Shown: piece after piece, positions 10,212 to 43,234 of the stretch
Layout of the letters: every line of letters starts with the position of its first letter
Numbering within the stretch: the stretch's first letter is position 1
Origin: Buxus sempervirens
Lineage: Eukaryota; Streptophyta; Magnoliopsida; Buxales; Buxaceae
NCBI GenBank assembly: GCA_947561395.2
Contig: OX387192.1
Span: 12,064,221-12,128,220, forward strand
Direction of reading: 5' to 3'
DNA: 64,000 nucleotides
Translations under genes and position numbers: made by a program
Notes under the pieces: generated by a model
Databases searched by the model: none
Told to the model about the DNA's origin: nothing
What the model saw: only the letters and a program-made list of their open reading frames with translations

Positions 10212-10265
10212 AGCAAAATTGGACAGTTTTCATTATCCATTCTCTTTAGGTGTGTTGAGTCTAGG

Positions 10266-10916: not shown

Positions 10917-10928
10917 GAAGTTAGAGAT

Positions 10929-21010: not shown

Positions 21011-21074
21011 TTTTTCTTCCTACCTTGCTTCGTTCCTCATTTCCACATGTTTGCAATCCGAATCGAAGAGCTCG

Positions 21075-22280: not shown

Positions 22281-24559
22281 TGTGAGACATGGGAAAAAAT
22301 CACCGGAGTGATCATCCCTCCGTCAGCACACGGGCTCAACGCAAAAACGGGAGAGTCGCCACCATTCATGATTTTGGGGTGAGAATGGACACCAAAGAGT
22401 TCAAAAGTAAGCAAAAATAGCCAAAAGACAAGTTCTAGGATAAAAATAATCCTACTTGAAAATCAAATCCAGAGATGGGTAAGGGGATTAGATTATGAAC
22501 GGGGGAAGGTGTTAGGCACCCCCATTCATCCACACGAAGTGGTTGCCAAGTGTATGTTCATGCAAAAAATAAAGTAAGAAAGCTTGCTAAAAATCATAGA
22601 AAACCTTGAAAAAGGATTAATGTATGATATTTTCACATGAAGATCTAAATGGATTTTAGATCCTCTCTTATGTCAATATCATTTCTGGAATATCTCAAAA
22701 GATGGAAATCAAAGTAGAGGTTGCTCAAAACCAAGTTAAATCAAATCCGGAAAATTCGGTAAAAAGTATGCCATTTGCCTTAAAATCATTCAAATCCAAT
22801 TCTGAATTGAACCAAACCAAATCCATTTGAAAGATTAGGGTAAATAAGAGTCTCATGCAAAATTTCACTTCATTCCAATGAAAAATCTAGGAGTTATGCT
22901 CCTTTGAAGTTGCTGTTGGGGATTTTTAAAAGTGGTAAGTGGGCAACTTTGGAAAATTGTCTAGAAAAATCCACTACATAGAAATCCATGAAATTTGGTG
23001 TGATTGAAGTCTGTATGGCCATCTTTTCAGAGAAACTAGCCTCATACAAAAATCCCTTCGGACGTGCCTTGGGTGGTCTCCCGAACAGGCCCCGAAGATC
23101 ACAGATTTACCCAGAAAAATGCAAATGAGCAGTTCTGAGTAAATCGGCTACCAATAATTCAAATGGAATCGAAAAATTATGAAACCAACTGGATTTGAAA
23201 ATAGACTCATAAAGGAGTACTCAGAAACAAAAATCACTCGAATCGGACTTAAAACGAACACATGGCGGTCCGTCGAAGTGACAAGTTCTGTACTTGGACC
23301 TGAACTGTCCACTTAACTTCGACAGAGAAGTGTCAAAAATCGGCTAGATGTAAATTCATGAAATTTGGTGGACATAAACTAGACAGCCTCACCTTTCCCA
23401 TGGTTCTGGAATCGCCCCAAAATTCATCCGGATGATGAAGTTACGGACGTCCGAAGTAAGGGTACAGGTGCTGTCAAGCTAAGCCACTCTTGAAGAAAAC
23501 CAAATCCGAAAATTGACAAAAAGTGTGTGATTCGTGTGAAATGAATCCAAAACCTTTGAAAAACATTTTAAAATACTCCAGAATTTGATTGAGGCCATTT
23601 ATTGGAGATTTATCACAATGAATGTAATAAATCCCCAAATATGAGCCTATCCCGCCAAAGTAGTGATATGTGTGCTAAAGTGAAAAAAACCAAGCAAGAT
23701 CCATACACATGCATATAGATTCAAAAAAATAGGTTCTAGCATAGCCTAGGGTTCCGTTCCATTGTCGTTTCCCTCTGTTCTCTTTAAGATAATCAAGGGT
23801 ACTTTGAATATGGAACGGTTTACAATCAATCAAAAAGGCCTTATGCTACATAGGTTCTAGCACTAGGGTCAATCCCTAGTCTCGTTTCTCCTAGATCCGC
23901 CTTCACGTTTTACGGCTAGGGGAGTCTTGAGATACTTTGAGCCAGGGAAGGATTTCCACATATACAAAACAAGGCTTTACACTACAGAAAGGTAGAAGAA
24001 GAGATCTAGATCTAGGAATGTAAAGACAAAAAATAAAAAGAAAAGTTGAGGTTTACCTGAGTTCTGGAGGCGATTCCACAGCGGTTTTCTTCTTCTCTTG
24101 GAGTTCTTCTTTGCGAGAATTCAAAACAAGAGTTGTGTGCCATTTGCTCAAGGAGGAGGCTCCTATTTATAGGCAAGGGCTAAGGTCATTGGTAGACACA
24201 ACTTAATGTCTAGAACCCCTCCAACCTAAACCCTAAGGTTATTTCCGCGATTTCCCCTCATTTAATGAGGGACATGATGGTAAAAGTGAAAAGCTCTCGG
24301 AAAACCCTAATTTTGAGCAAACTTAAGGTATCCGGTATATCAGACCGGATAACAAAGGGCCTTAAGGTATCCGGTACATGGTACCGGATACGCTAGGGCT
24401 CACATGTATCCGGTATGAGTATCCGGATACGGGAAAAGGTACTTGTATCCGGATTGAGTATCCGGATACAGGTAAAAGTATATTTTCTTCAAATTCTGTG
24501 CTGGCTTTCCAGGAGATAATGATTTTTGATGATTGTTTGTGCAATTTGGGGTGTCTACA
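22281..24559 (-). repeat. LTR (3' LTR in the element's orientation)
   Basis: On the plus strand it begins TGTGAGACAT and ends GTGTCTACA. In the element's own direction it begins TGTAGACACC and ends ATGTCTCACA. It carries four TATCCGG palindromes close to its U3 edge, then a TATA box (complement of TCCTATTTATAGG, 24161-24173). Near the R/U5 end is GGTGGCGACTCTCCCG, a near copy of the PBS, as is common in Tat LTRs. It differs from the other LTR at about six bases over 2,279. Confidence 0.97.
24329..24468. promoter_or_regulatory. Palindrome array 1: four TATCCGG-N9-CCGGATA units, period 39 bp
   Basis: Units start at 24329, 24368, 24407 and 24446. All keep TATCCGG on the left and CCGGATA on the right with exactly nine bases between. 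Spacers of 16 bp differ in sequence. The second unit is a perfect palindrome with a 3-nt centre. The array lies in LTR U3, 156 bp upstream of the LTR TATA box in element orientation. Confidence 0.93.
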
Positions 24560-24572
24560 ACTGCCCCTCTTT
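24560..24572 (-). other. Polypurine tract
   Basis: On the minus strand AAAGAGGGGCAGT abuts the 3' LTR. It is the expected primer for plus-strand DNA synthesis. Confidence 0.85.
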
Positions 24573-24969
24573 GTGGGAGCTGCGAAGCAGTGAGCTGCAA
24601 AGAGTAGACAAGCCCAAATTGCATTCCCTTGAGCATGATTTGCTCGGTTTAATTCAATTTCTGTAGAAAACCATTTTTGAGTGGAGATTTGCCAAAAAGC
24701 CCTCACTTTAAGGGGGGCATCTCTCCAAGAGTTCTTAAATCCCACTGAGCCCTTTGTGGCTGTGAAGTGGATTTTAAGCCCAAAAATAGGATTTTTTTGA
24801 AAAACTGATTTTTTATCAAACCAAGTTGAAAATTGAGTGGATATCATCCTTTTGACCAGGCACATTTCCCAAAGTTGTCTCAAATTCCACAGAGCTCTCG
24901 TGGCTGTGAAGTGGATTTCAAGACAAAAATAGGATTTTTGAGAAAATAGTAAGAATTATAGCACAAGTT

Positions 24970-25145
24970 TGCTTTTTCTCTTTTTTTTCTTCTTTTTTTT
25001 TCTTTTCTCTTTTTTTTTCTTTTTTTCCTTTTCTCTCTTTTTTCTTTTCTTTTTTCTTTTCTTCTTTTTTCTATTTTTCCCTGTTTTTTCCTCTATTTTT
25101 TCTATTTTTTTCTGTTTTTTTTCTATTTTTTTCTTTTTTCTTTGG
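24970..25145 (+). repeat. Homopyrimidine tract upstream of the PMD gene
   Basis: It contains about 175 bases of almost only T and C, broken by a few A and G near the end. It abuts palindrome array 2. Such tracts resist nucleosomes and are common in promoters, so it may help keep this one open. Just upstream, 24690-24790 and 24880-24950 are two diverged copies of a segment containing GTGGCTGTGAAGTGGATTT. Confidence 0.8.
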
Positions 25146-25207
25146 TATCCGGTAGGTATATCCGGATAATCCAAGGCCTGCGGGTATCCGGCCTGAGTAT
25201 CCGGATC
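25146..25207. promoter_or_regulatory. Palindrome array 2: two units, upstream of the PMD gene TATA box
   Basis: Units start at 25146 and 25185 (39 bp apart, spacer 16 bp). The last base of the second unit departs from the consensus (CCGGATC). A TATA-like TTTATAAG lies at 25216-25223, only nine bases beyond the array. Confidence 0.9.
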
Positions 25208-25215
25208 CCCCAGGT

Positions 25216-25543
25216 TTTATAAGTCGCGCGCGACCGCGACTTTTCCTCTTCTTTTCTTCTTGCTCCGATTACTCAGACCGGCCCCAGGCTTTGCTTCTTC
25301 GACGACCGACGATCCTACTTCTTCTCCGGCGATCTCCGACGACTCCGGTGCTCCTTTTGCTGCCGGCGACCACCTGTAACTCCGGCGACTTCTGTTCCTT
25401 GCCGCGACTGAGCCCTAACTCGGCTTTCTTCAAAAATTTTCGATTTCCAGCGACTTTATCAACTCAGTGTGGGGTGTTGATCTTCGGTGATTGCTTGTGC
25501 CTAATTCTTCATCAACCAGATTCCCTTCTTTGCTGCTCAACTG
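25216..25543 (+). promoter_or_regulatory. PMD gene promoter and 5' UTR exon
   Basis: TTTATAAG at 25216 is followed by a pyrimidine-rich leader with a donor CTG|GTAAGT at 25543/25544. The acceptor GTTGTAG|ATG at 26247/26248 would place the start codon right at the beginning of the next exon, giving a 704-bp leader intron. Long leader introns are frequent in plant genes. The upstream exon contains an ATG frame of its own (25291) whose relevance I cannot judge. Confidence 0.6.
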
Positions 25544-26247
25544 GTAAGTGCAATCCGACCCCGTCAAGCATGCTCTCTTTTTTTTTTCTTTGCATGATTC
25601 CATCGAATTCAAGCATGCTTTTGCTTTGATCATGTTGGATTATTGTGGATTGGATTTTTGTCATTGATAATTCACCACTGCATTGTGCCCAGCATGACTT
25701 TTGTATTTCCCATATAACTATTGATAGAATTTTCAGACTTCATGCTATGTGATTTTTTTCAAAATTTGTATTGACTTTCAATTGCCATTTTTTTTTGAGC
25801 TGCCCATGTGACCGTGGCTTGTGCAAGCCTTGACTTGATAGTGTCCAAAACTTAGGACTGCCTTGCTGCTACCTCTTTTGTCTTGATATGCTGGGGTTTA
25901 TTTTTTCTCAATCCGCCCGGTGTTAATGTTGTGCTCTAACTGCCAGGACCATTCTGTGGTTGGTTCTTGTACTCCTTGATTTAGCTCAGACCATTTGTTT
26001 TTTGCACAACTGTAACGATCCTGCAGTAAATTATCAGATATTAGGCCTTGTAAACAAAATGTTTTAGAATAATATAGGAATATTTTCTAAACTTTGAACT
26101 AAAACACAATTCCTGAAAAATCATATAAGATTCCTGATGAACCAGAGTTGGAACCTATACAAAAAATTTTCTTTTCAACTTGAACTGAGCAAAGTAGGAT
26201 TCCAGATAGATTTGAACTGAAATTTATAAAACACTTCCCTGTTGTAG

Positions 26248-28915
26248 ATGGCTAGGAGTCGCTCTCGTGTGCGAGAGGAGGCTGACCCAGCTGATCAGCC
26301 CTCCACTTCGCGGGCTCGGGCGGAGGCGAGTTCCAGTGCCACCTTGTCTGAGCCATTAGGTGGCTCTAGGGAGAGCTCTGCTGAGGTAGGTTTCAAGTTC
26401 TGCTTTCTTTCTTTCTTCCATTCTCCTTTCCCACACAACCTTCACACCTTTCTCTTGAATTTTAGCCCGTGGTTGCACCGGCTCGGGGTCGAGGCAGAGG
26501 CCGAGGCAGAGTTCAGGATCAGGCCCCTGAGGGCGAGAGAGGCCGTGGTAGAGGCTGAGGCAGAGCCAGAGATACGGCTCCGGAGGGGGTTGCTGTAGCT
26601 CTGGCCGGGGTCTCTGAGGAGTTGAGGGCTTCTGTGCATGATACAGAGCTCCTCCATGGCTTGGATAGCCACCCCTCTATGTGCATCAGGGCCGATGTGC
26701 CGCTTCTCTACTACTCTTCCCACTTGCGCGGCAGCTGGGGGAGATTCAGCGAGTTGGCACGGTCACTTTCTCCGGCACTCAGGCGGGAGTTTGGGAGGTG
26801 CCACCTGGATCACTTCCTCAGTATTCCATCGTTCAGAGCCGACCGTCCGCTTATTTTTGCCATGATGGAGAGATATTTCCCTGAGACGCAGTCATTTCAT
26901 TTGCCGGACGTGGAGCTGGGGATCCGCCCCTCGGATTTTGTGATGATCACCGGTATTCCATTGACTGGGCGGACCATCATCTTGGAGCGGCCTTCTGCGG
27001 AGGATATTGGCCTCCTTCTGGGGTATCAGGCCCTGCCACCTACTGCCTGGGTTGGGAGGAGTGGCCGGCTCACCATTAGCTGGCTGCGGGAGAGTCTGGC
27101 TCGCCATTTTGAGAGGAGGCACGAGATCGTTTCTGTGGAGGATGCAGCCTTTGCGCCGATCTTCCGACATGTATTCCTGCTGATGTTGGGGAGCTGCTTC
27201 TTCCCGGAGGATACGACTGGTGTCAGTCCGCTCTTTTTGGACGCCTTGAGAGATTTCCATCAGACCCGCCAGCTAGCATGGGGTCGGCTGATCTATGGGA
27301 CCATCTTGGCCGGGCTGTGCCGAGCGGTTCGAGGCTTAGCATCTCCGAGAGGTGATGGAGTCAGCAGCCGGTTCTTCTGGCAGATTCTACAGGTATTGCA
27401 TTCATCTGTCTGGTTTAATTCCTTCGGCTTTATCTTTTCTTGACTGATTTTTCTTTTGCTAGGTGTTCATGTACACCTATATGACCTTCTTCCGACCCTC
27501 CCCGGTACCTGAGGTCGCAGATTTTCCAGTGGCTTTGCGATGGTCGGCCCAGGTCCGGGATGCCGATAGGAGCCAGCCTCGCACTGCCCGGGTGCACTTA
27601 GACCGTGCCCGCCGATCTGATGTAAGCCTTATTTTTTTTCTTCTATTTTCTTTCCTGTATCTTGACTGTATCTGACCACTTTGCTTCTTTGCAGCTCATT
27701 CTATCCCGTCCAGATGACGTGGATGTCGGAGTTGCCCGTGAGATGGCAGTACAGGATGCTTTTGAGAGAGATCTCCGACGTCAGCCTTACCAGTGCTTCC
27801 TTGGGAGGCTTGGTAGGGTGATGTACTTGGGAGAGCGCCTGTACTACCAGCACACTGGCGCACTTCGCATCCCCGTCCCTCCTCCTCCTGTGGGTCCCGA
27901 TACACTCCTTCCCGGCTTTGACGTGGATCAGTTTGATCATTTTCTGGATGCAGAGGGGCTCACAGTAGCCGGAGATTACGACGAGTGGTTCCAGAGGGTG
28001 TCTATTGGATGCTTGATGGATCGACCCACTCGTGCCGGGGTGACCGAGATCGGCGGGATCCGTATCCGGATCCACGAGGACACCGTAAGTCTTGTACTTT
28101 TCATATCTTCCTCTTTTCTTCCTTTATGTATTTCTGATCCTGCTTCTGTTCTTGCTGGCAGGTACACGAGCTGAATACCATCCGGGACCGGTTTGAGAGT
28201 CAGCGGGCCGCGATTGATGATATGATCGCGGAGCACGATGCGGTCGTGGCCCAGCGGGATGCCCGGATCAGGGAGCTGGAGGCCTTAGTTGCTGAGCTCC
28301 AGGCTAGACAGGTATCTGGCCTTCTCATATGTTCATTTCTTTCATTTTTTCCTGTTTCTGCTATTCTGATATGCTTGTTTGACTTGTGCAGGGCCCGGTC
28401 CATGATCAGGATGCCTTCTTTGAGCATGATTTCCTGATTCCTGACCCATCTCCTGCTCGGGCCTCTGATCCCGAGGATGCCCCAGCGGCTGGTCTTGACG
28501 AGCCGGATCCTCCTGCTCCTTCTGTAGACCTTCCTGGTATGATCTTCTTTTAATTCTCCTCTTTTATTCTTCCTTATATCTGAGTCTTCTGATTTTTCTC
28601 TTTTCTGTGGACTTAGCTACTTCTGATCCTGGCCCCTCTGCTGCTGATGCTGGGCCTTCTGGAGCTGCGGGAGCAGAGGATGCTTTGGATGAGGGCCCAG
28701 TTGGGCCGGTTGTTGCTGAGCCCGAGGCTTCTTCCCCAGATTCTACTCCTGCTCCTCCCCCAAATCTCGAGGATTATTGCTTGGAGTATCATCTTCAGCA
28801 GGTGGTGGGTCGGCATCCTCGCCATGCAGCTGAGCGGATCCTTGCATACTCTAGAGGCCGAGCACTTTGGGGGAGAGGCCGTAGAGGTGGACGCGGCCGA
28901 GGACGCGGGGGATGA
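26248..28915 (+). CDS. Plant mobile domain (PMD) protein gene inside the retrotransposon, seven coding exons
   Basis: Predicted exons are 26248-26385, 26466-27392, 27463-27621, 27695-28084, 28162-28311, 28392-28536 and 28617-28915. All introns are GT-AG and every junction keeps the frame (about 736 codons). Residues about 125-405 read as a PMD: FHLPDVELGIRPSDFVMITG, GLLLGYQ, ISWLRESL, FLLMLGSCFFPEDTTG and LAWGRLIYGTILAGLCRAVRG are family hallmarks. Exon 5 is coiled-coil-like. Short RG repeats lie before the PMD, and the C-terminus is GRGRRGGRGRGRGG. PMD proteins act in host silencing (MAIN/MAIL family) and are often carried by plant transposons. A TGA at 26556 falls where the RG repeat predicts CGA, a CpG-type C-to-T change, so this copy may be truncated or start downstream. 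It is antisense to gag-pol. Confidence 0.85.
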
Positions 28916-29136
28916 TCCTGCATAAGAGTAGATTAGGATTTTTTCATTTTCATGTATTTATCATCATCCCTGTACAAAACTTCCAGATATATATGAAAAA
29001 AACTTTTTATTCATTCTATCATGTCTTGCACATCTTTTGCTCTCAATTTTATGCAATTATGACATGTAAGCAGGTAAAACAGGTAAAAAATTCGGATTTT
29101 TTTTATCCTTAGCTCTTTTTTTGCATTTTTTCTCGG

Positions 29137-29275
29137 TATCCGGTCTGACATATCGGATACATTGATTGGTCTTTGTATCCGGTATGTCATACCGGATATT
29201 CATGGAATCCTCTGTATCCGGTATACTTATCCGGATATTACTAAAGCCTTTGTATCCGGTCTGAGTTACCGGATA
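29137..29275. promoter_or_regulatory. Palindrome array 3: four units, upstream of the DUF7745-like gene TATA box
   Basis: Units start at 29137, 29176, 29215 and 29253 (periods 39, 39, 38). The second unit is a perfect palindrome around GTC. The first has TCGGATA instead of CCGGATA. The array ends 13 bp before the TATA box at 29288-29295. Confidence 0.93.
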
Positions 29276-29287
29276 CGTTAAAAGATG

Positions 29288-29297
29288 CTATAAATGC
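29288..29297 (+). promoter_or_regulatory. TATA box of the DUF7745-like gene
   Basis: CTATAAATGC lies directly after palindrome array 3 and about 118 bp before the first ATG (29406). Confidence 0.7.
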
Positions 29298-29405
29298 AAC
29301 CAGTCTCGGGATTTGAGCATTTTTTACGAGTTTTTGAGTTTAGAAACCCCCTTTTTCGCCTTTTTCTTCCTTCTCTTGAGTTCTAGCTTGCTCCCGTCAA
29401 ATCCA

Positions 29406-31108
29406 ATGGAATCTGGATCATCTTCTGCCCCATTATTGTCTGTCCACACTGCCTCCCCTGCAAAACAGCCTTTTAGATCAAAACCCCCAAATCTCACTAG
29501 GTACAACCCTGTGGATTCCTTTTTCACAAGTGGGTTAACTCTATGACCCTAGATGAGGAGAGGAGATGGGGTTCTACAAATCTAGGCCATACCCTGCTCA
29601 TTCCCAAGGTTCCCTTCAGGTGGGAGATTATAGAGGCCATGATTGGTCATTGGGTTCCTGATCTCAACTTGTTCCGTTTTGGGACCCATGAGATGACCCC
29701 AACCATTGAGGAGGTGGAAACCATCCTGGGCCTGAGGTTTGATGAGAAGGTGGTGAATCCACCTCTTAGGCCCAGTTACAAGAAGGAAGCTTCTACTTTT
29801 TTGGGCATAGGGAAGAAGGACTTGGGGGATTCTGACACCCTTTTGACCCTATCTAAGGCTTTTTTGACTGAGAAGCTTTTGAGGGGAGAAGATAAGGAGG
29901 CCCGATTCAATGCGTTGACCCTGATAGTGGTCAACCAGTTGCTTTTCCCACGGGAGGATGACGAGGTGGACTTGGCCTTGATTTCCGTGATATGCCAGGT
30001 TAGGGAGCGGGAGAGGTTGGCCCCTATGATTTTAGCTGGGATATATCAGGCCTTAACCGACTGCTACAATAGGAAGTCGAAACGCTTCCTAGCAAGTGCC
30101 CAGATCCTGCAGGTAAAAAGTTTTTTCTTTTTTTTTTTCTTTTTTTCTTGCTTTTTGGCTTTCTTTTTGCCTTTTTTGCTTTTTTTTTTTTTATATACAA
30201 TGTGCTGACACCTCTTTCTTCCCTTGCAGCTTTGGCTACTTGATCATTTGAGCCAGATTGAAGAGATCAATCGACACTTCTTCCCGAGTCTGAAAGTCCC
30301 TTTGTTGATGAGCAACAGGGGGTGCCCCGATATTCTAGGGGGCAAACAGGGCTGGTTCACTTTCTTGGGCTCGCTTCAGGATGATCAGGTGAGATGGCCT
30401 GGTACTTATCAGCCCAATGCGGAGACAGTGATTAGCTTCCGAGACCGCAACTTTCTGATTCTAGCGGGCCTGAAGCATGCAATGCTGTATCTTCCTCTGC
30501 GGGTCCTTCGTCAGTTCCGAGCGACCCAGGGGATTATCATCCCATGTGGATATGAGGATCGTCTTGGGCCCCTTTCTATGAAGCTGAATGCCTGGTTGAT
30601 GAAGGAGTGGTCCTATGTCCGCTTCATGCATGGTCTAGTCTTCTCAGAAGCCCATGTGAAGGATTATCTCTTCTGGATCAAGGAACAGATACAGACTCAG
30701 GCCCCAGTACCCGAAGATCCTCCTGTAGTCTTGGCTCCCACCTATGAGGACATTCTAGAGTCTGAGCGGGCTTCTCATAAGCGGCTTCAGCAGATATGGG
30801 TACGGGAGGCCCAGGAGCTCAGGATACAGGGCGCTTATCTGGAGAGGCAGCTTGAGGAGCAGACCTCACGCCGTATTGCCGTGGAAGAGAAGCTGGAGGA
30901 GCAGAGGCAGGCCCGTTGCTTCGAGGTCCGTATGATCCGGCAGAAGTACCAGGCTACTTTGGCCAGCCTCAGGAGTATGAGGATCAAGCAGGCCCTTTCA
31001 GATGAGGTCATTTCCTTCCTGAGTGATCCCGCTGCAGAGGGGGCTTCAGGAGTCATTGCAGCTCAGGTAGCTCGGATTCTGGAGCTTGAGGAGCGGTTAG
31101 GAGATTAG
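29406..31108 (+). CDS. DUF7745-like coiled-coil protein gene inside the retrotransposon
   Basis: The main frame runs 29543-30112, then a GT-AG intron (30113-30229, T-rich, acceptor CCCTTGCAG), then 30230-31108. That gives 482 codons from the ATG at 29543. Residues about 15-70 (LGHTLLIPKVPFRWEIIEAM, FRFGTHEMTPTIEEVETILG) fit the DUF7745/PMD-like group seen in Ogre ORF1-type proteins. Residues 370-480 form a long coiled coil rich in E, R and Q. An upstream ATG at 29406 starts MESGSSSAPLLSVHTA in another frame. The two frames meet near 29530, where the downstream frame reads KWVNSMTLDEERRW, so a 1-bp shift may have cut off the natural N-terminus. The gene is antisense to pol and shares promoter layout with the PMD gene. 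Function is unknown; DNA or chromatin binding is inference. Confidence 0.75.
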
Positions 31109-32056
31109 CTTTATTTCCTGCACATTTTTCATTCCTTTGTACAAAATTGAACTCCAATAGTGGAAATACAAAGGATTTAATTCAAAATAAAGTTTTTATA
31201 TTATTGGCCTCAGAATGCTCAGATGCTTGTAAAAACAAAGGTTTTATGAAAAGTATTTGATTTCTCATCACTGGCCAAAGTATAATTTTTCCTTTTTTCT
31301 TTTTTTTTTTATGTTTTTTTGAAATTTGGTCCATGCACTTAATCACCTATAATTAAAGGAATTAAAACCAGGTTAAATAATGAAAATGGTAGTCCACAAA
31401 ATACTGAGGGATCAGAACCGTCCATCTTAGGACCTTTAGAGTCATCCCCAAAATGCCAAAACTGCCCCATTCTGCTCATGCCAACTTTGCTTGAAGCTCA
31501 GATCCCCATGATCAACTCAACCTTTGATTTTCTTTCCTTTTTCTTATATTTTTTTCTTTTTTGCCTTTTTGCCAATATTGCCCCTAGCGCCAGTTACGGT
31601 TTTCACTAGGGCCGGCTTCTGAATTCCGTCGTCACCCATCTTACTCTGACATTTGAATGAACAAGCTAAGATCACCGAGGGCTTAAAAATAGGACGAAAT
31701 AAAGGCTAGGCTCAGTTTATGAAAGAAAGGGTATTAAAGGCCCAAAAATTTTCAAGTGTGGAAATAGGTCAACCGGATTTACAGTCATGATAGATTTACC
31801 CATTTTTCCCCAAATTGCATTTTTTGCATCTTTTTTCACACTTGGCTTTCATTTGCAATTTCCATTGCTTTTCCTCTCTTTTTCTTTTTCTTTTTCTTTC
31901 CTTACTTTGCCCCAACTTGTTTTGCCCCAATTTGACTGTAAATCCGGTTTGGGTTGATCAAAGAAACGAACCGGCTCAACTTGGCTAGACTAGGGATTAA
32001 AATTTTTGAAGGAAATAAAGAAAAATGGCCTCGGATCATTTCCTAGAAATATTCAC
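31109..32056. other. Convergent intergenic region between antisense genes and pol
   Basis: It is T-rich and has no open frame of note. AATAAAGTTTTTATATTATTGG near 31186 is a plausible 3' end for the plus-strand gene. The end of gag-pol lies at 32057 on the other strand, so the two transcription units converge here. Confidence 0.6.
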
Positions 32057-32610
32057 TCAAGGATAATACCTTTTTACCGCATCAGCGTTAATGGGCTCAG
32101 GAAAATCTGCCCCATCCATTTCTGCTAAGATGAGTGCACCCCCTGACAGGACTTTCTTGATGACATATGGGCCTTCCCAATTGGGCTTGAACTTACCACG
32201 AGGGTCTTCCAAAAATGGTAGAATTTTCTTTAGCACTAAGTTTCCTTCTTGGAAAGTTCTGGGCCTCACTTTCTTATTGTAAGCCCGGGCCATTCTCTTC
32301 TGGTACAACTGTCCATGGCAAAGTGCTTTCAACCGCTTTTCTTCTATCAGGTTAAGTTGATCATGTCTCGACTGGACCCATTCGGCTTCTTCTAGTTCTG
32401 CTTCCATGAGCACTCGGAGTGAGGGGATCTCTACTTCCACGGGCAAGACTGCTTCCATCCCATAAACTAGGGAGTACGGGGTTGCCCCAGTTGAAGTCCG
32501 GATCGAGGTTCTGTATGCATGCAGAGCAAGTGGCAGCATTTCATGCCAATCCTTGTAGCTCACTACCATCTTCTGAATGATTTTCTTTATGTTTTTGTTT
32601 GCTGCATTTC
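32057..32610 (-). pseudogene. Integrase C-terminal fragment
   Basis: The frame reads AANKNIKKIIQKM, then MVVSYKDWHEMLPLALHAYR, TSTGATPYSLVYGMEAVLPV, then RPRTFQEGNLVLKKI and KFKPNWEGPYVIKKVLSGGAL. This is only the end of the integrase core and the C-terminal GPY/F-type domain. The HHCC zinc domain and the catalytic DD35E core up to the last helices are missing. The frame joins the RT end directly near 32600, in a different phase. The reading frame ends at 32057. Confidence 0.9.
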
Positions 32611-33840
32611 AATTATGGCCTTGGCTTTAGCCGGGTCAATTTCAATTCCTCTTCGGCTCACTATAAACCCCAGTAACTTCCCTGATGTAGCCCCAAAGAC
32701 GCATTTAGCCGGGTTAAGCCGTAGACTGTACTTCCTGAGCCGATCAAACACTTTCTTCAGATTGATCAAGTGGTCTTCCTCTTTGCATGATTTGGCAATC
32801 ATATAGTCCACGTAGACCTCCATCTCCTTATGGATCATATCATGGAATAGTGCTGTCATGGCCCGCTGATATGTTGCCCCGGCATTCTTGAGTCCGAATG
32901 GCATGACTGTATAGTGGAATGTGCCCCAAGGTGTGATAAATGCTGTTTTCTCTTGATCTTCCTTAGCCATCTTTATCTGATTATATCCCGAGAAGCCATC
33001 CATGAAGGAAAACAGGCTATGTACCGCCGTATTATTGACCAAAATGTCGATGTGTGGAAGCGGAAAATCGTCCTTTGGGCTTGCCCTGTTTAAGTCTCTA
33101 TAATCCACGCACATTCGGACCTTCCCGTCCTTCTTTGGTACCGGCACTATGTTTGCGAGCCACTCCGGGTACGTAGAGACTGCCAAAAATCCCGCCTGAA
33201 ACTGTTTGACCACTTCATCCTTGACCTTCAGAGTCCACTCAGGTTTCAATCTTCTCAGCTTCTGCTTGATTGGCTTAATCCCTGGCAAAATTGGCAACTT
33301 GTGCACCACCATGTCAGTGTCCAACCCCGGCATGTCCCGATATGACCAAGCAAACACATCCTTGTAATCTGCCAAGAACTGTGACATTTCATTTTTCTGC
33401 ACACCAGACAAGCATGACCCGATTTTTACAATTTTTGGGTCATCTTTGGTCCCAAGGTTTATGGATATGGTCTCCTCAATATTAGGTTGGACCCCCTTTT
33501 CATGACGTTCCAACTGGTATTCAATTTCTTTTGGAACGTCTTCTTCTTCGACCTCGGTCTCTTCTTCGACCCCCATGAGATCAAAGTCGAGCTCAAGGTC
33601 GAAGTTATATTCAACCTGGTCCAATTCGGTCTGATTATATGGTTCATAAGTGGTTTGGACCTTTTTGAAAAAATTAAATTTCCTAGAAAAAATAGAAAAA
33701 TCTTTTTGGGTTTTTTGTGAGCCTTCTAAACATAATCCCCCTGAAGACGAAGGCCCATTAGAACCTTCAGGGAAATGGCATTCCACTATTGGAGTTTTTT
33801 TTGGAAGCCGCGTCAGTTTGCCACACAGACGCTGCTTCAA
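32587..33840 (-). pseudogene. Reverse transcriptase, catalytic motif YVDD changed to YVDY
   Basis: The 417-codon frame overlaps the end of gag-pro by 74 bases in another phase, as in Ogre elements where an intron or shift joins the two. Family motifs are FAWSYRDMPGLDTD, KQKLRRLKPEW, YPEWLANIVPVPKKDGKVRM, FSFMDGFSGYNQIKMA, PFGLKNAGATYQRAM and KLLGFIVSRRGIEIDP. At residues 341-344 (32803-32814) the active site reads YVDY. The second catalytic aspartate codon is now TAT, so the enzyme cannot work. RNase H and the archaeal-type RNase H typical of Tat elements are absent: sequence jumps from the end of RT to the integrase tail. Confidence 0.95.
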
Positions 33841-36800
33841 AAGTAAGGGGAGTTTCCTCCCAATTGTTCAGTACAAAATTTTTGGGAGCAGGGGAAATAG
33901 GGAAAGCCTGCTCCTCAAGCCCAGCATCCGATGCCATCATCACCGGGTGGGTACTGCCCTTTTCTGCTACGGGGCCCAATCCAGAAATGACCTCTTCCGG
34001 AATCTTTACTGCGGCCCAGTCAATAAACGGCAGTTCCATGTCTGCCCCTGTCTTTTCGCCTTCAGTCATGGCGAAGAATGCACCAACATCCTCAGAAAAG
34101 TCCACCTTCTGCTCGGGCTGTGGTCCAGGCCCATCCACTGCTCCCAGTATTGGAGATGGGTTATAGGGTTTTAGGGCCGAAACAGAAGGCTTTTGAAACG
34201 GGTTGATGTTGTAGTAGGGAGGCTTGGACTGGTCCATGGGAGGAGAAATTTGGATTATATAGGAGGGTTTAGGGAAACTTTCCCTTAAATGAGGGAGTTT
34301 TCCTTTGCTTCTGCTCTCCCCTTCTTCGTGCTTCATTCTTCTCCAGCCTCTGGGCTTGAAGCCCAACCCTACCTTGGGGATCAGTTTCTTAGCCGTGATT
34401 GGCTCCACCATCCCCTGCAGATTGATCCCCAGGCCTTTCCCTGGGTGAAAGTGGTATTTCTCCATCACTTTCTTGACCATCTTTTCTGCAGTGGTCCCCT
34501 TTTCCTTCTTTTTCTCACACCCCCCAGGTATGTAATTTACCGCCTCAAATTGAAATGAGTGGAATGCAATCTTGTCGACAGTCAAGTCCACATTGATTAA
34601 TGGTACATCAGGTGACACAATGGGCGGCACCAAGTTTTCGGCTAGGACTGTTATCACCCTTTGCCCTCTTATGTATTTCACCCTCTGGTGGAGCGTGGAT
34701 GGTATTGCCCTAGCCGAATGTATCCACGGCCTTCCGAGGAGCAGATTGAAAGCTGCGGGTATATCCATCACCTCAAATGTGATGTTAAAGATATTCGGCC
34801 CAATTGTGACCGGCAGTTCAATCTCCCCTAGGGAGTGGGTCTTGGAGCTATCAAAAGCCCTTACTATTCGCCCATTTCTTTTGATCCTTGACTGGTCCAG
34901 ACCCAGCTTGGTAAAAGTGATTAACGGGCAAACGTTTAATGCCGACCTGTTGTCAATTAAAACCCGTGCAACCATGCAGCCCTTACAAAGCACAGTGATG
35001 TGCAAAGGGTCCACATGATAACACCCACCTGGGCTGATCTCACCCTCTGAGAAACTTATCACATTATGTGACAAGATTTGACCAACCATTTTACCAAGCT
35101 GGTCCGGATCAATTGTCTGGGATACGTGTGCACTCTGTAGCACCCTTAACAATGCATCCCTATGCTTTTCAGAATTCAGCAAAAGGCCCAGTATTGAAAT
35201 CTGGGCTGGGACCTTGTTTAGCTGATCCACAAGATTGAATTTGCTTTTCTTTATTATTTTAATGAGGTCGGCTGCCTCATTTTCTGCACCCTGGGGGGTG
35301 TCTTCTCCTACTTTATTTTTTCCCTTCTGTTTTCTTTTTTCTTTATTTTCTTTTTTTTCTTTCTCCACTTCTGTCTCCTTTTCTTTCTCTTCATCCCCTG
35401 CACATCTCCCCGATCTCGTCATGAGGTTCACCTCCTCCTGGTTCTGGTTCCTGACCATTGGAACCGTAGCCGTGATTCCCTCGCTATAGTTCCATGGTAC
35501 AGCGGCCTCTGAATAGGCTAGTTTAGGGATGTCAACCACTAGTGGCTGGAGTTTGGACCTGGATGTATGGGCCGGTTTAGGGATAGTTTGGGCTGGCTGC
35601 ACATTTACAACCAGGGGTTGAAGTTTGGATTTGGTGGGGACAGAAGAAGTGATGGAAGCAGTGGTGGGGTCAAGATTGATGACCAGTGGAGCCTTAGACG
35701 GCTTGGATGGGGAATAAGTGGGCGGACTGCAATTGAAGACCAATGGGGGCCTTGCAGTATTCATCTGGGCCATGAGTGAAGAGACCCGGTTTAGAGAGGA
35801 ACTTATGTCCTCAGCAGCAAGATTATTTTTTTGGGAGACCATGTTGATCTCCTCCTCTTCCTCTTCTGGGAAAAATCGGACCTGGACTGTGGTCCCCACA
35901 GGGGCTATTAGCTGTGATGGGTCAAAGGCCCTTCTGGTGGTGGATATGGCCGAGATGGAGTTGGATGGGCCTGCCCCATTGTGGTAAGGCAGAGGGTTCT
36001 GCCCAATATCATTCCCGGACTGGGCCGGTGCAGCAGTGTTGAACACTAAGGCCTTCTGGTCCAACAGGTCCTGGACCGCATGCTTCAATACCCAGCAGGT
36101 ATCGGTAGAATGCCCCGGTGCACCCATGTGGAAATCACAGGTGACCGATGTGTCAAAATTTCTCCCTTTCGGGGCATTTGGGTTAGGCTCCTTCAGAGTC
36201 AAGTATTCCCCTTTCAGCAGGGTTGGCAGTAGTTGGGACAGCGATATGGGTAGAGGGGTGAAAACCCGGTTCTTTCTTGCTGCGAACCAGGCATCCCGCT
36301 CCTCCTTAGAAAAAGTCCTCTTTGTGTTAGCTGGCACGGAAGGAGAGAAGTTGACATTCAGCGGGGTCTGGTACGACTGCTGGGCCTGCTGGGCCTGTTG
36401 GGGTGCCGAGATGTTGACGTGCAGTGGCTTCTTGGCTGGAGGAGCCTGGACCAGGTTCACCTCCCCTTCTTTTCGGGCCCCCGTCTTTTTAAACCCGGCC
36501 CCTTTCTTCTGGGCCATGGAGGCCGAGGAATCAGACTGCCCAGTCAGAGTAGAGTAGTCTATCAGCCGTCCTGACCTGACCCCTTCCTCGATCCGGTCCG
36601 CTACCTGTACCAGGGCTGCAAAGTTGGTGGTGATCTGACCCACCAGATGGTTGTAAAAGGGCTGCCCCAGTGTGCCCATAAATGTGGAGATCATCTCCGG
36701 CTCTTGCATAGGTGGCATGACCTGGGAGGCGGCCTCTCTCCATCTCTTGGCGTACTGCCGTACCGGTTCATCTTTCCCCTTGGTCATCCTCATCATGTCG

Positions 36801-37540
36801 TACCGGTCTGGCACGATCTCCGAGTTGAACTTGTACTGGTCCAAGAAAGCATCGGCCAAGTCCTTCCACTTTCTAATCCTTCCATGGTCCACTGTAGCGA
36901 ACCACCGAAGGGCTGACCCGGTCAGACTCCTCTGGAAGAGCTGGATCAGTATGCCATCATCCCGGCCAAATTGACATAGGGCCCCGCAGTATAATTTCAG
37001 ATGGCTTAATGGGCAGCCCGTGCCATCAAATTTATCGAAGTCTGGGCACCTGAACTTAGTAGGTAGACAGACGTCCGGGTACATGCACAGGTCCTCGAAG
37101 GTGGTGCCTGCATGGCTACCTCCCCCCTTTACTTTCTTCAACTCTGCCTGGATCCTCTCTATCTTGAGCAGCATTTTCTTTTCCATCTCATTCCTAGCCT
37201 TTTCTTTTTCCAGCTCTTTCTCAGACTCTACTGTATTTTCCCTGATCAGAATGGGCTCAGGGACTGGTTCAGAAATGGGCTCAGGCATGGGCTGCGCCGG
37301 AGGCGGAATATAGGCCTGAGGTGGCGGTGCCGGATGAGAAGTCGACGCCTGATTTTGGGCTTGGGCCTGCTGGGCCTGAGCCGCCAGTAGGTCTCCCAGC
37401 ATCTTGGCCAGACCGGCCACTTGCTCCTGCAGCTGAGTAAAGTCCTGAGCAGGGACAGTAGCTTGGGCTTGGTTCTCTTCAGTATTCATGGCTCTTGCTT
37501 TGGATCTGGTCACGGGAGCAATGACTGCAAATAAGTGCAC
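33767..37540 (-). CDS. gag-protease polyprotein with altered protease active site
   Basis: The single 1,257-codon frame starts at 37540. Residues 40-75 are Q/A-rich. Residues about 150-330 are a Retrotrans_gag region (CPDFDKFDGTGCPLSHLKLY, RWFATVDHGRIRKWKDLADA, RWREAASQVMP). A CX2HX5HX4C box is at about 468. A KEKE-rich stretch is at about 730-775. The retropepsin region is at about 845-960 (LHITVLCKGCMVARVLID, LLGRPWIHSA). A G-patch-like GKGLGINLQGM is at about 1030. The protease motif, DNG in relatives, reads DNR at residues 863-865 (34940-34954). That should remove activity, though the long frame itself is intact. Gag may still assemble particles. Confidence 0.92.
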   Translation of the reverse strand: MHLFAVIAPVTRSKARAMNTEENQAQATVPAQDFTQLQEQVAGLAKMLGDLLAAQAQQAQAQNQASTSHPAPPPQAYIPPPAQPMPEPISEPVPEPILIRENTVESEKELEKEKARNEMEKKMLLKIERIQAELKKVKGGGSHAGTTFEDLCMYPDVCLPTKFRCPDFDKFDGTGCPLSHLKLYCGALCQFGRDDGILIQLFQRSLTGSALRWFATVDHGRIRKWKDLADAFLDQYKFNSEIVPDRYDMMRMTKGKDEPVRQYAKRWREAASQVMPPMQEPEMISTFMGTLGQPFYNHLVGQITTNFAALVQVADRIEEGVRSGRLIDYSTLTGQSDSSASMAQKKGAGFKKTGARKEGEVNLVQAPPAKKPLHVNISAPQQAQQAQQSYQTPLNVNFSPSVPANTKRTFSKEERDAWFAARKNRVFTPLPISLSQLLPTLLKGEYLTLKEPNPNAPKGRNFDTSVTCDFHMGAPGHSTDTCWVLKHAVQDLLDQKALVFNTAAPAQSGNDIGQNPLPYHNGAGPSNSISAISTTRRAFDPSQLIAPVGTTVQVRFFPEEEEEEINMVSQKNNLAAEDISSSLNRVSSLMAQMNTARPPLVFNCSPPTYSPSKPSKAPLVINLDPTTASITSSVPTKSKLQPLVVNVQPAQTIPKPAHTSRSKLQPLVVDIPKLAYSEAAVPWNYSEGITATVPMVRNQNQEEVNLMTRSGRCAGDEEKEKETEVEKEKKENKEKRKQKGKNKVGEDTPQGAENEAADLIKIIKKSKFNLVDQLNKVPAQISILGLLLNSEKHRDALLRVLQSAHVSQTIDPDQLGKMVGQILSHNVISFSEGEISPGGCYHVDPLHITVLCKGCMVARVLIDNRSALNVCPLITFTKLGLDQSRIKRNGRIVRAFDSSKTHSLGEIELPVTIGPNIFNITFEVMDIPAAFNLLLGRPWIHSARAIPSTLHQRVKYIRGQRVITVLAENLVPPIVSPDVPLINVDLTVDKIAFHSFQFEAVNYIPGGCEKKKEKGTTAEKMVKKVMEKYHFHPGKGLGINLQGMVEPITAKKLIPKVGLGFKPRGWRRMKHEEGESRSKGKLPHLRESFPKPSYIIQISPPMDQSKPPYYNINPFQKPSVSALKPYNPSPILGAVDGPGPQPEQKVDFSEDVGAFFAMTEGEKTGADMELPFIDWAAVKIPEEVISGLGPVAEKGSTHPVMMASDAGLEEQAFPISPAPKNFVLNNWEETPLTFEAASVWQTDAASKKNSNSGMPFP

Positions 37541-37689
37541 CTGGGTTGAATGTACCTGATGAAAAAAAATGAATAGAACATGTTAGCTTCCATTTAACTT
37601 GAGTCACACCCCTATATATGTAAACCAGTAGGTTAGGTAAACACCAATCCAGATTTTTTTGTTTTTTTGTTTTTTTTTTGTTTTGATTT

Positions 37690-39020
37690 TGTGTTGGAAT
37701 ATTCTAGGGCTTCCAAGGGTCCCATAATTTTTTTTGATTTGATTGATAAAAATAACCAACCAAGGTTTTTATGGAATATTCTAGGGCTTCCAAGGGTCCC
37801 AATTTTTTTTTTGATTTGATTGATAAAAATAATCAACCAAGGTTTTCATGGAATATTCTAGGGCTTCCAAGGGTCCCAATTTTTTTGATTTGATTGATAA
37901 AAATAACCAACCAAGGTGTCTTGGAATATTCTAGGGCTTCCAAGTATCCCACAAATGTTTTGATTTGATTGATAAAAATAACCAACCAAAGGTATCTTGG
38001 AATATTCTATTCAAGTATCCCACAAATGTTTTGATTTGATTGATAAAAATAACCAACCAAAGGTGTCTTGGAATATTCTAGGGCTTCCAAGTATCCCACA
38101 AATGTTTTGATTTGATTGATAAAAATAACCAACCAAAGGTGTCTTGGAATATTCTATCCAAGTATCCCACAAATGTTTTGATTTGATTGATAAAAATAAC
38201 CAACCAAAGGTGTCCTGGAATATTCTATCCAAGTATCCCACAAATGTTTTGATTTGATTGATAAAAATAACCAACCAAAGGTGTCTTGGAATATTCTATC
38301 CAAGTATCCCACAAATGTTTTGATTTGATTGATAAAAATAACCAACCAAAGGTGTCCTGGAATATTCTATCCAAGTATCCCACAAATGTTTTGATTTGAT
38401 TGATAAAAATAACCAACCAAAGGTGTCTTGGAATATTCTAGGGCTTCCAAGTATCCCAATTTTTTGATTTTTTTTTTGATTTGATTTGATTGATAAAAAT
38501 AACCAACCAAGGTTTTCATGGAATATTCTAGGGCTTCCAAGGGTCCCAATTTTTTGATTTTTTTTTGATTTGATTTGATTGATAAAAATAACCAACCAAG
38601 GTTTTCATGGAATATTCTAGGGCTTCCAAGGGTCCCAATTTTTTTGATTTTTTTTGATTTGATTGATAAAAATAACCAACCAAGGTTTTCATGGAATATT
38701 CTAGGGCTTCCAAGGGTCCCAATTTTTTTATTTTTTTTATTTGATTGATAAAAATAACCAACCAAGGTTTTCATGGAATATTCTAGGGCTTCCAAGGGTC
38801 CCAATTTTTTTGATTTTTTTTGATTTGATTGATAAAAATAACCAACCAAGGTTTTCATGGAATATTCTAGGGCTTCCAAGTGTCCCAATTTTTTTGATTT
38901 TTTTTGATTTGATTGATAAAAATAACCAACCAAGGTTTTCATGGAATATTCTAGGGCTTCCAAGTGTCCCACTTTTTTTGATTTGATTGATAAAAATAAC
39001 CAACCAAGGTTTTCATTTTT
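37690..39020 (-). repeat. Tandem repeat array in the gag leader, about 17 units of 71-90 bp
   Basis: Every unit contains GATTTGATTGATAAAAATAA, then CCAACCAAGG and TGGAATATTCTA. Units of 71 bp lie at about 38011-38440 (spacing exactly 71). Longer units with GGGCTTCCAAG and variable T runs flank them. On the minus strand most units are open in one frame (GWLFLSIKS), but lengths are not multiples of three, so this is not a protein repeat. Tandem repeats in non-coding parts of Ogre elements are known as seeds of satellite DNA. These lie upstream of gag. Confidence 0.95.
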
Positions 39021-39315
39021 TTTTTGATTTGAAATCTCATGCATTTTAGAAGATTTTCAAGTTCTAAAGCTGGATTGACATATATTTGAGTTGAGTTGGT
39101 GTCAAAAAATATGACACCTTGGTTTCCTCTTTGATTTTCAAACTTAGGTTAAATCCTGAAAGAATATTTTATTTTATTCTTTTTTCTTTTTTGTTTTTTG
39201 TATTTTGGAACATTTTTTTATGTTCTTTTTGGGGTGCCTAAGGATGATCCACAGTGTTTTAGGCATTTTATTCTGAAAACTTGGGCTGAAAAGCCAATTT
39301 GTGCATTTTTGAACG

Positions 39316-39455
39316 TATCCGGTATAACATTCCGGATAATAATATGCCTTATTGTATCCGGTCACCATAACCGGATTCACACACATGCCTTTGTATCCGG
39401 AAATGTGTACCGGATATGAACAGAGTTGTTATTAACCGGCCTGAGTTACCGGTTT
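39316..39455. promoter_or_regulatory. Palindrome array 4: four units in the leader
   Basis: Units start at 39316, 39355, 39394 and 39433, all 39 bp apart. The fourth is diverged (AACCGG...CCGGTT). Spacers are 16 bp and unlike those of the other arrays, except that several end in GCCTTTG or TTG. No TATA box was found just downstream on the minus strand, so this array may mark a second promoter or act at a distance. Confidence 0.9.
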
Positions 39456-40934: not shown

Positions 40935-40953
40935 GTCCCCAGCAGAGTCGCCA
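40935..40953 (-). other. Primer binding site, Ogre type
   Basis: Two bases inside the 5' LTR the minus strand reads TGGCGACTCTGCTGGGGAC, whose complement ends in CCA as a tRNA 3' end does. From memory this is the tRNA-Arg type PBS typical of Ogre elements. The first half is repeated inside both LTRs. Confidence 0.88.
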
Positions 40954-40955
40954 TT

Positions 40956-43234
40956 TGTGAGACATGGGAAAAAATCACCGGAGTGATCATCCCTCCGTCA
41001 GCACACGGGCTCAACGCAAAAACGGGAGAGTCGCCACCATTCATGATTTTGGGGTGAGAATGGACACCAAAGAGTTCAAAAGTCAGCAAAAATAGCCAAA
41101 AGACAAGTTCTAGGATAAAAATAATCCTACTTGAAAATCAAATCCAGAGATGGGTAAGGGGATTAGATTATGAACGGGGGAAGGTGTTAGGCACCCCCAT
41201 TCATCCACACGAAGTGGTTGCCAAGTGTATGTTCATGCAAAAAATAAAGTAAGAAAGCTTGCTAAAAATCATAGAAAACCTTGAAAAAGGATTAATGTAT
41301 GATATTTTCACATGAAGATCTAAATGGATTTTAGATCCTCTCTTATGTCAATATCATTTCTGGAATATCTCAAAAGATGGAAATCAAAGTAGAGGTTGCT
41401 CAAAACCAAGTTAAATCAAATCCGGAAAATTCGGTAAAAAGTATGCCATTTGCCTTAAAATCATTCAAATCCAATTCTGAATTGAACCAAACCAAATCCA
41501 TTTGAAAGATTAGGGTAAATAAGAGTCTCATGCAAAATTTCACTTCATTCCAATGAAAAATCTAGGAGTTATGCTCCTTTGAAGTTGCTGTTGGGGATTT
41601 TTAAAAGTGGTAAGTGGGCAACTTTGGAAAATTGTCTAGAAAAATCCACTACATAGAAATCCACGAAATTTGGTGTGATTGAAGTCTGTATGGCCATCTT
41701 TTCAGAGAAACTAGCCTCATACAAAAATCCCTTCGGACGTGCCTTGGGTGGTCTCCCGAACAGGCCCCGAAGATCACAGATTTACCCAGAAAAATGCAAA
41801 TGAGCAGTTCTGAATAAATCGGCTACCAATAATTCAAATGGAATCAAAAAATTATGAAACCAACTGGATTTGAAAATAGACTCATAAAGGAGTACTCAGA
41901 AACAAAAATCACTCGAATCGGACTTAAAACGAACACATGGCGGTCCGTCGAAGTGACAAGTTCTGTACTTGGACCTGAACTGTCCACTTAACTTCGACAG
42001 AGAAGTGTCAAAAATCGGCTAGATGTAAATTCATGAAATTTGGTGGACATAAACTAGACAGCCTCACCTTTCCCATGGTTCTAGAATCGCCCCAAAATTC
42101 ATCCGGATGATGAAGTTACGGACGTCCGAAGTAAGGGTACAGGTGCTGTCAAGCTAAGCCACTCTTGAAGAAAACCAAATCCGAAAATTGACAAAAAGTG
42201 TGTGATTCGTGTGAAATGAATCCAAAACCTTTGAAAAACATTTTAAAATACTCCAGAATTTGATTGAGGCCATTTATTGGAGATTTATCACAATGAATGT
42301 AATAAATCCCCAAATATGAGCCTATCCCGCCAAAGTAGTGATATGTGTGCTAAAGTGAAAAAAACCAAGCAAGATCCATACACATGCATATAGATTCAAA
42401 AAAATAGGTTCTAGCATAGCCTAGGGTTCCGTTCCATTGTCGTTTCCCTCTGTTCTCTTTAAGATAATCAAGGGTACTTTGAATATGGAACGGTTTACAA
42501 TCAATCAAAAAGGCCTTATGCTACATAGGTTCTAGCACTAGGGTCAATCCCTAGTCTCGTTTCTCCTAGATCCGCCTTCACGTTTTACGGCTAGGGGAGT
42601 CTTGAGATACTTTGAGCCAGGGAAGGATTTCCACATATACAAAACAAGGCTTTACACTACAGAAAGGTAGAAGAAGAGATCTAGATCTAGGAATGTAAAG
42701 ACAAAAAATAAAAAGAAAAGTTGAGGCTTACCTGAGTTCTGGAGGCGATTCCACAGCGGTTTTCTTCTTCTCTTGGAGTTCTTCTTTGCGAGAATTCAAA
42801 ACAAGAGTTGTGTGCCATTTGCTCAAGGAGGAGGCTCCTATTTATAGGCAAGGGCTAAGGTCATTGGTAGACACAACTTAATGTCTAGAACCCCTCCAAC
42901 CTAAACCCTAAGGTTATTTCCGCGATTTCCCCTCATTTAATGAGGGACATGATGGTAAAAGTGAAAAGCTCTCGGAAAACCCTAATTTTGAGCAAACTTA
43001 AGGTATCCGGTATATCAGACCGGATAACAAAGGGCCTTAAGGTATCCGGTACATGGTACCGGATACGCTAGGGCTCACATGTATCCGGTATGAGTATCCG
43101 GATACGGGAAAAGGTACTTGTATCCGGATTGAGTATCCGGATACAGGTAAAAGTATATTTTCTTCAAATTCTGTGCTGGCTTTCCAGGAGATAATGATTT
43201 TTGATGATTGTTTGTGCAATTTGGGGTGTCTACA
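40956..43234 (-). repeat. LTR (5' LTR in the element's orientation)
   Basis: It is the same length as its partner, with the differences seen at 41084, 41664, 41813, 41847, 42083 and 42727. The transcription start should lie below the TATA box at about 42836-42848, running leftward through the leader to gag. The palindrome array sits at 43004-43143, 156 bp upstream of that TATA box. Confidence 0.97.
43004..43143. promoter_or_regulatory. Palindrome array 1 in the other LTR
   Basis: It is an identical copy of the array in the partner LTR (units at 43004, 43043, 43082, 43121). This is the copy upstream of the promoter that drives gag-pol. Confidence 0.93.

What the first reader, a model, noticed from the sequence alone, without database searches (positions are those of the whole stretch)
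24329..43143. 39-bp-period arrays of TATCCGG-N9-CCGGATA palindromes repeated in five places of one retrotransposon
Eighteen units share two 7-bp inverted half-sites held exactly nine bases apart, while the nine central bases and the 16-bp spacers vary. Period is 39 bp in all but one interval. Arrays of 4, 2, 4, 4 and 4 units lie at 24329, 25146, 29137, 39316 and 43004. Fixed geometry with variable filling implies selection on the half-sites, not simple duplication. The core CCGG is also a CHG methylation site, so binding could be methylation-sensitive. I know of no described element with this layout.
Basis: seen in the sequence. Interest (0 to 1): 0.88.

Follow-up and report, generated by a model that had tools for sequence, protein, structure and literature searches.

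The report
Palindromic promoter arrays in a retrotransposon
A plant jumping gene and some of its relatives carry rows of evenly spaced mirror-image DNA sites in front of their promoters, kept unchanged while the DNA between them changes, which looks like a control switch read by one specific protein that is not yet known.

Summary
In detail: 18 units (14 exact, 3 with one mismatch, 1 with three), 12 of 13 intervals at 39 bp. Two of the five arrays are one array duplicated in the LTRs. The element is a 21-kb, provisionally Tat/Ogre-like retrotransposon on the minus strand with two antisense plant-mobile-domain (PMD) genes. Half-sites vary about 3 to 11 times less than cores and spacers in four arrays and in a second lineage, also in ten copies not chosen by motif. 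Genome-wide, 28,399 of 28,814 half-site pairs within 30 bp have exactly nine bases between them. New here: arrays lie upstream of transcription units. The last half-site ends 13 bp before a TATA box at antisense gene 2, 12-13 bp in the second LTR lineage ("family B"), 10 bp at gene 1 in 4 of 7 copies, 157 bp in this LTR family. I read the arrays as promoter operators for a symmetric trans-acting protein. The binder is unresolved: host factor, or the element's own PMD proteins (pN/pS 0.10), which would parallel VANC anti-silencing. One family B element examined throughout its interior has no PMD gene. Binding and methylation are untested.

The parts
40956..43234 (-). 5' LTR of the element (element 22281-43234, target duplication GCTTT on its strand)
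   Evidence: self-BLAST; ends and flanks read
22281..24559 (-). 3' LTR
43004..43143 (-). LTR array, 4 units, 5' copy
42841..42846 (-). LTR TATA box, 157 bp downstream of the array
39316..39455 (-). leader array, 4 units, between 5' LTR and gag; no TATA box 10-13 bp after it
32057..37582 (-). gag-pol region in overlapping open frames: gag and G-patch, reverse transcriptase; the 32057-32608 frame has no Pfam hit and is taken as integrase end from recall and from its match to family B pol
29137..29275 (+). array upstream of antisense gene 2, 4 units
29289..29294 (+). TATA box 13 bp after the gene 2 array
29501..31107 (+). antisense gene 2: open frames 29501-30112 and 30230-31107 with an intron between; DUF7745/PMD; start codon not settled in this copy
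25146..25207 (+). array upstream of antisense gene 1, 2 units
25218..25223 (+). TATA-like TATAAG 10 bp after the gene 1 array
26248..28915 (+). antisense gene 1, seven exons by splice-site reading, PMD; one in-frame stop in this copy
24329..24468 (-). LTR array, 4 units, 3' copy

Best explanation
The arrays are promoter operators. Each 39-bp unit is one dyad-symmetric binding site: two half-sites, roughly Y-N4-G-TATCCGG, facing each other across nine bases. Units are stacked at a fixed period upstream of the transcription units of the element: the LTR promoter and the two antisense PMD genes. A symmetric, probably dimeric, protein acting in trans binds the half-sites, neighbouring dimers touching at every 39 bp, and controls these promoters together. 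Shown: geometry, conservation of half-sites, position relative to TATA boxes, sharing between element lineages, and retention in a deletion derivative. Inferred: that a protein binds, that it is a dimer, and that it activates or protects from silencing rather than represses. I put a host-encoded binder (about 0.45) a little ahead of an element-encoded PMD binder (about 0.35).
For: Half-site columns vary less than cores and spacers in 4 of 4 arrays and in family B, 19 sequences and the 10 of them fetched without using the motif: 0.037 against 0.356 core, 0.298 spacer, 0.199 flank. CpGs in half-sites are kept at 0.969 (8 columns) against 0.748 (55 other LTR columns). Spacing is fixed genome-wide. 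The last half-site ends 13 bp before TATA at gene 2 in 6 of 6 copies and 12-13 bp in 12 of 12 family B sequences from 11 elements; 91 of the first 100 listed places of CCGGATA-N(5-35)-TATAAA have a gap of 12 or 13. In the window's LTR family the distance is 156-157 bp in 14 of 16 LTRs. Five kinds of altered half-site occur on both sides of one unit. A deletion derivative with 99.5% identical LTRs and its own target duplication keeps three kinds of array while lacking the stretch equivalent to 26370-35568.
Against: No expression, binding or methylation data. The leader array has no TATA box at that place, 3 of 7 gene 1 promoters lack TATAAG, and the window's LTR family has its TATA 157 bp away. 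Half-sites are not significantly more conserved than flanks in the leader array (p 0.15) and only modestly at gene 2 (p 0.012). Family A loci were mostly found by an exact motif match, which favours conserved half-sites; the 17 LTRs come from 11 insertions, and the column permutations ignore relatedness. Four of the 8 units altered alike on both sides are one leader unit in related copies, and 46 of 61 altered units are altered on one side only.
Confidence: 0.72

Rival explanations
1. Version A of the operator model: a host transcription factor is the binder. The element borrows it for its LTR and uses the same sites for its internal antisense genes.
For: Family B has the arrays and, in one element examined throughout its interior, no PMD gene. 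Position just upstream of TATA is ordinary for an activator, and plant LTRs often recruit host factors (PMC12786077, passages). GGATA resembles known MYB-related and other plant motifs only from recall.
Against: No lone exact site among the 90 listed places, whereas host targets would be expected to include some. Five or four stacked 25-bit sites are more specific than usual for a host factor (from, inflated by how units were chosen).
Confidence: 0.45
2. Version B: the binder is an antisense-encoded PMD protein. It activates the element's promoters or protects them from silencing, and serves related lineages in trans, as VANC proteins do for VANDAL elements.
For: Both antisense genes have an array in front. 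Their exons are under purifying selection, pooled pN/pS 0.10, per exon 0.06-0.17. 120 of the 133 listed gene 1 exon copies show no stop (my count; capped to the best candidates). MAIN, MAIL1 and PP7L depend on a promoter motif in Arabidopsis (PMC7156037, passages). VANC6 motifs occur in unrelated AT9TSD1 (PMC5735166).
Against: The family B element without PMD genes. No DNA-binding domain was recognised in the exon pieces and AlphaFold models were too poor to use, mean pLDDT 39 and 38. No DUF1985 or Transposase_28 match.
Confidence: 0.35
3. The units work as hairpins or cruciforms in RNA or DNA, for example in packaging, reverse transcription or recombination.
For: Symmetric variants, cores inverted in place in L032/L033 and L050, and a small excess of self-complementarity in cores, 0.435 against 0.351, reached by 11 of 5000 re-dealt sets.
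Against: The half-site letters themselves are conserved, not only pairing; the outer bases at 0 and -5 are also constrained; arrays stand upstream of TATA boxes, outside the antisense transcripts.
Confidence: 0.08
4. Neutral tandem repeats without function.
For: Tandem repeats are frequent in Tat-group elements (PMC11963269); similar cores recur in different arrays, so duplication took part.
Against: Cores and spacers vary more than flanks in 3 of 4 arrays and in family B, while half-sites vary less. Unit number and place are constant in 5 of 5 full-length copies whose array regions were fetched.
Confidence: 0.04

Closest known systems
VANC21/VANDAL21 and VANC6 anti-silencing systems of Arabidopsis (PMC5735166, PMC10398659)
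   Same: Short motifs repeated in non-coding regions of a transposable element, including upstream of genes, with a family-encoded protein as candidate reader and unrelated elements sharing a motif.
   Different: Here an LTR retrotransposon; dyad-symmetric sites at a fixed 39-bp period instead of same-orientation motifs at high density; candidate proteins are PMD, no DUF1985 match; no binding or demethylation shown.
Ogre and Retand (Tat) retrotransposons with extra ORFs (PMC6317226, PMC11963269)
   Same: Large Ty3/gypsy element with extra ORFs; [quoted passage not shown]
   Different: Two antisense PMD genes each with its own array; same array in LTR and leader; the passages I read describe tandem arrays as variable in sequence and number and assign them no promoter role.
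Host-factor sites in plant LTRs, such as the heat-responsive element of ONSEN (PMC12786077)
   Same: Cis motifs upstream of the LTR transcription start.
   Different: Strictly phased dyad array, also used at internal antisense promoters; the binder is unknown.
Arabidopsis MAIN/MAIL1/PP7L and the DOWN promoter motif (PMC7156037)
   Same: PMD proteins linked with a promoter DNA motif.
   Different: Host genes, a motif in unrelated promoters, and direct binding not shown there.

Membership tests
VANC-type anti-silencing system | Motif arrays in non-coding regions of the element | tested here: met
VANC-type anti-silencing system | Reader related to VANC (DUF1985/DUF287) | tested here: not met
   No such Pfam match at E up to 10 in nine exon pieces
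VANC-type anti-silencing system | Reader binds the motif and removes methylation | not testable with these tools
   no expression, binding or methylation data
Ogre/Tat lineage | Ty3/gypsy polyprotein with extra ORF carrying PMD, 5-bp target duplication | tested here: met
   gag, G-patch, RT, PMD; GCTTT duplication
Ogre/Tat lineage | Second (archaeal-type) RNase H, primer type and place in the RT tree | not tested
   Primer site TGGCGACTCTGCTGGGGAC was read but its tRNA is recalled, not checked; no tree made
Retand lineage | Antisense Transposase_28 ORF between pol and 3' LTR | tested here: not met
   No PF04195 match in the exon pieces
Retand lineage | LTR length in the published range 315-1194 bp | tested here: not met
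   2279 bp; range from PMC11963269
LTR enhancer repeats | Repeated motif upstream of the LTR TATA box | tested here: met
LTR enhancer repeats | Bound by a host factor and needed for transcription | not testable with these tools
   no expression or binding data

The most novel reading that the evidence does not exclude
A VANC-like self-activation or anti-silencing system in LTR retrotransposons: antisense-encoded PMD proteins read 39-bp dyad operator arrays set at the promoters of the element, including their own, and other retrotransposon lineages in the genome have come under the same operator code.
Probability: 0.3. Interest if true: 0.88.

Novelty: new variant of a known kind. Interest (0 to 1): 0.62.

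Why it matters
PMD ORFs are reported in 57% of surveyed Ogre elements (PMC6317226) and have no known function there. A conserved operator of defined geometry at their own promoters gives them a concrete DNA target to test. If instead a host factor reads the arrays, it is an unusually strict regulatory code repeated at 28,399 exact units in one genome. Either way a 39-bp unit is small enough to test directly.

Tried and rejected
Neutral repeats: contradicted by column conservation and CpG retention. Hairpin-only reading: weak support, kept as a rival at low odds. AlphaFold models of two PMD exon pieces were too poor (mean pLDDT 38.9 and 38.3), so no fold search was made. A protein search with gene 1 exon 2 scored none of 6718 candidates at E 0.001. 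PDB search with the same piece gave three matches at E 0.23-0.44, taken as chance. Common descent of the promoter stretch after the array: 8 pairs were compared by shuffling; 3 stood out (gene 2 with B L036, 0 of 300; gene 2 with B L044, 3 of 300; LTR-A with B L044, 0 of 300) and 5 did not (23, 61, 84, 153 and 278 of 300 shuffles reached the score), so shared origin is suggested for gene 2 and LTR, not shown for gene 1 or leader. The genome-wide count of the symmetric variant TAACCGG-N9-CCGGTTA did not complete. Text searches: TATCCGG with retrotransposon, 27 papers, 20 listed, none seen to fit from titles; 39 bp with gypsy, tandem and LTR promoter, 0 papers; palindrome and LTR terms, 21 papers, 12 listed, none seen to fit.
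Full report
WHAT IS THERE. The window lies in a 676.5-Mb genome, a plant by its content (PMD genes, element types). The five arrays belong to one retrotransposon on the minus strand, 22281-43234, with 2.28-kb LTRs that are 99.7% identical and a GCTTT target duplication. Pfam finds gag, G-patch and reverse transcriptase; the last pol frame has no Pfam hit and is taken as integrase from recall and from its match to a related pol. In antisense between pol and the 3' LTR are two intron-containing genes: gene 1 with the plant mobile domain, gene 2 with DUF7745/PMD. In this copy gene 1 has an in-frame stop and the start of gene 2 is not settled. The name Tat/Ogre-like is provisional: no tree was made.

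OBSERVATION. The 18 units are at the reported places: 14 exact, 3 with one mismatch, 1 with three; 12 of 13 intervals are 39 bp. The two LTR arrays are one array duplicated. In 5 of 5 full-length copies on contig C1 whose two ends were fetched, all five arrays are present in the same order.

GENOME SCALE. The exact unit occurs 28,399 times (reversed control 5); the half-sites with any gap of 1-30 occur 28,814 times (control 58). Units join with N16 in 17,900 of 20,412 cases with gaps of 1-30; the listing shows that part of the rest are pairings of a chance CCGGATA inside a unit with the next unit, or 38-bp periods. Of the 90 exact places listed, all on the first 5.9 Mb of C1, 90 have a neighbouring unit at 39 (85) or 38 bp (5). 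Among all fetched array loci up to L051, intervals under 130 bp are 39 (134), 38 (5), 103 (9), 104 (2) and 92 (1).

SELECTION. Mean pairwise difference per column, half-site / core / spacer / flank: LTR array, 17 LTRs from 11 insertions, 0.023 / 0.257 / 0.227 / 0.124; gene 2, 6 copies, 0.018 / 0.081 / 0.130 / 0.063; gene 1, 7 copies, 0.020 / 0.167 / 0.167 / 0.209; leader, 7 copies, 0.038 / 0.155 / 0.108 / 0.060. Against core plus spacer the permutation p is 0.00075 or less in 4 of 4; against flanks it is 0.00005 (LTR, gene 1), 0.012 (gene 2) and 0.15 (leader). Most of these loci were found through an exact motif match, which biases towards intact half-sites. Ten family B promoters fetched by similarity to the sequence next to the array, not by the motif, give 0.037 / 0.356 / 0.298 / 0.199; 19 family B sequences give 0.070 / 0.399 / 0.371 / 0.227, eight of them chosen with CCGGATA before TATAAA. 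CpGs in half-sites are kept at 0.969 (8 columns) against 0.748 (55 columns) elsewhere in the LTR. A symmetrised count of 113 distinct 39-mers adds a G before TATCCGG and a pyrimidine five bases further out.

SYMMETRY. Of 117 distinct units, 56 are exact, 46 have one half altered, 8 have both altered alike (five kinds: TAACCGG in four, TAGCCGG, TATCCAA, TATCCGA, GATCCGG) and 7 have both altered differently. The four TAACCGG units are the same leader unit in related copies. Cores can be inverted in place: ATTGAGTAT against ATACTCAAT in L032 and L033, CCTGAGTTG against CAACTCAGG in L050. Self-complementarity of cores is slightly raised (0.435 against 0.351, 11 of 5000).

PROMOTERS. The last half-site ends 13 bp before TATAAATG at gene 2 in 6 of 6 copies (the script printed 12 for the window because of its 38-bp interval; 13 by the sequence) and 10 bp before TATAAG at gene 1 in 4 of 7; the other three have no TATA there, nor has the leader array. 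In the LTR family of the window a TATA box lies 157 bp downstream in 13 of 16 LTRs, 156 in one, 167-168 in two. A second LTR lineage, my family B, gave no blastn match of 60 bp or more to the element (L036) and only array matches to it in a laxer search, while its reverse transcriptase part is 72-74% identical, the last pol frame 75% and gag about 40%. Its LTRs carry five units, with a 92-104-bp gap between two of them, and TATA 12-13 bp after the last unit in 12 of 12 sequences from 11 elements. Of eight more promoters, picked through the CCGGATA-TATAAA pattern for variety, five have the same five units and three have four, one of these with a unit too degenerate to score. Genome-wide CCGGATA-N(5-35)-TATAAA occurs 1,900 + 1,947 times against 490 + 477 in the control; 91 of the 100 places listed, all on the first 22.8 Mb of C1, have a gap of 12 or 13; copies of the same family are not independent. 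Similarity of the stretch after the array was seen in 3 of 8 pairs compared.

WHO READS THEM. The antisense exons are under purifying selection (pooled pN/pS 0.10, 5-6 copies). Gene 1 exon 2 has at least 133 close copies, 95-100% identical, 120 without a stop by my count of the listing (133 of 3167 candidates were scored). A deletion derivative with 99.5% identical LTRs and a CTATG duplication lacks the stretch equivalent to 26370-35568, that is gene 2, most of gene 1 and reverse transcriptase, and keeps its LTR, gene 1 and leader arrays; this fits cis sites served in trans. In family B, one element examined throughout its interior shows no match to the PMD exons and a second was examined for 4 kb, which leaves more than 1.8 kb before its 3' LTR unseen. 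That weakens version B without excluding it; VANC6 motifs in the unrelated AT9TSD1 are a precedent for sharing.

LITERATURE. PMC11963269: parts 1-3 of 5 and passages. PMC5735166: parts 1-2 of 6 and passages. Passages only: PMC6317226, PMC9289625, PMC10398659, PMC7264820, PMC7156037, PMC12786077. None of what I read describes this layout; searches were made, open-access PMC only.

VERDICT. A real, selected, promoter-linked operator array of unusual strictness in one retrotransposon family and at least one related lineage. Its role as an operator is likely; its reader and any link to methylation are untested.

Noticed in passing
window 37732-39016: Two interleaved tandem arrays of 71- and 84-bp repeats in the leader between the leader array and gag; copy number differs between copies.
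   Followed up: no
L022 and L023 (C1 about 3.384-3.396 Mb): A deletion derivative without reverse transcriptase or gene 2, with its own 5-bp target duplication and 99.5% identical LTRs, keeps its arrays.
   Followed up: partly
L032/L033 LTR unit 4; L050 last unit: The nine-base core is inverted in place while the half-sites stay, as if the palindrome arms let the centre flip.
   Followed up: partly
window 43004 to 42846: The array-to-TATA distance of 157 bp exceeds that of family B by about 144 bp, close to one nucleosome core; possibly chance.
   Followed up: no
window 20516-21012: Three copies of a 167-bp tandem repeat, 94% alike, beside the element.
   Followed up: no
window 6033-12145: Open frames on both strands that read like LINE-type reverse transcriptase pieces, by eye only.
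   Followed up: no
L056-L058: Family B promoters in which half-sites drift towards TATCCGA, with cores of the CATNNNATG type; possibly a diverged recognition code.
   Followed up: no
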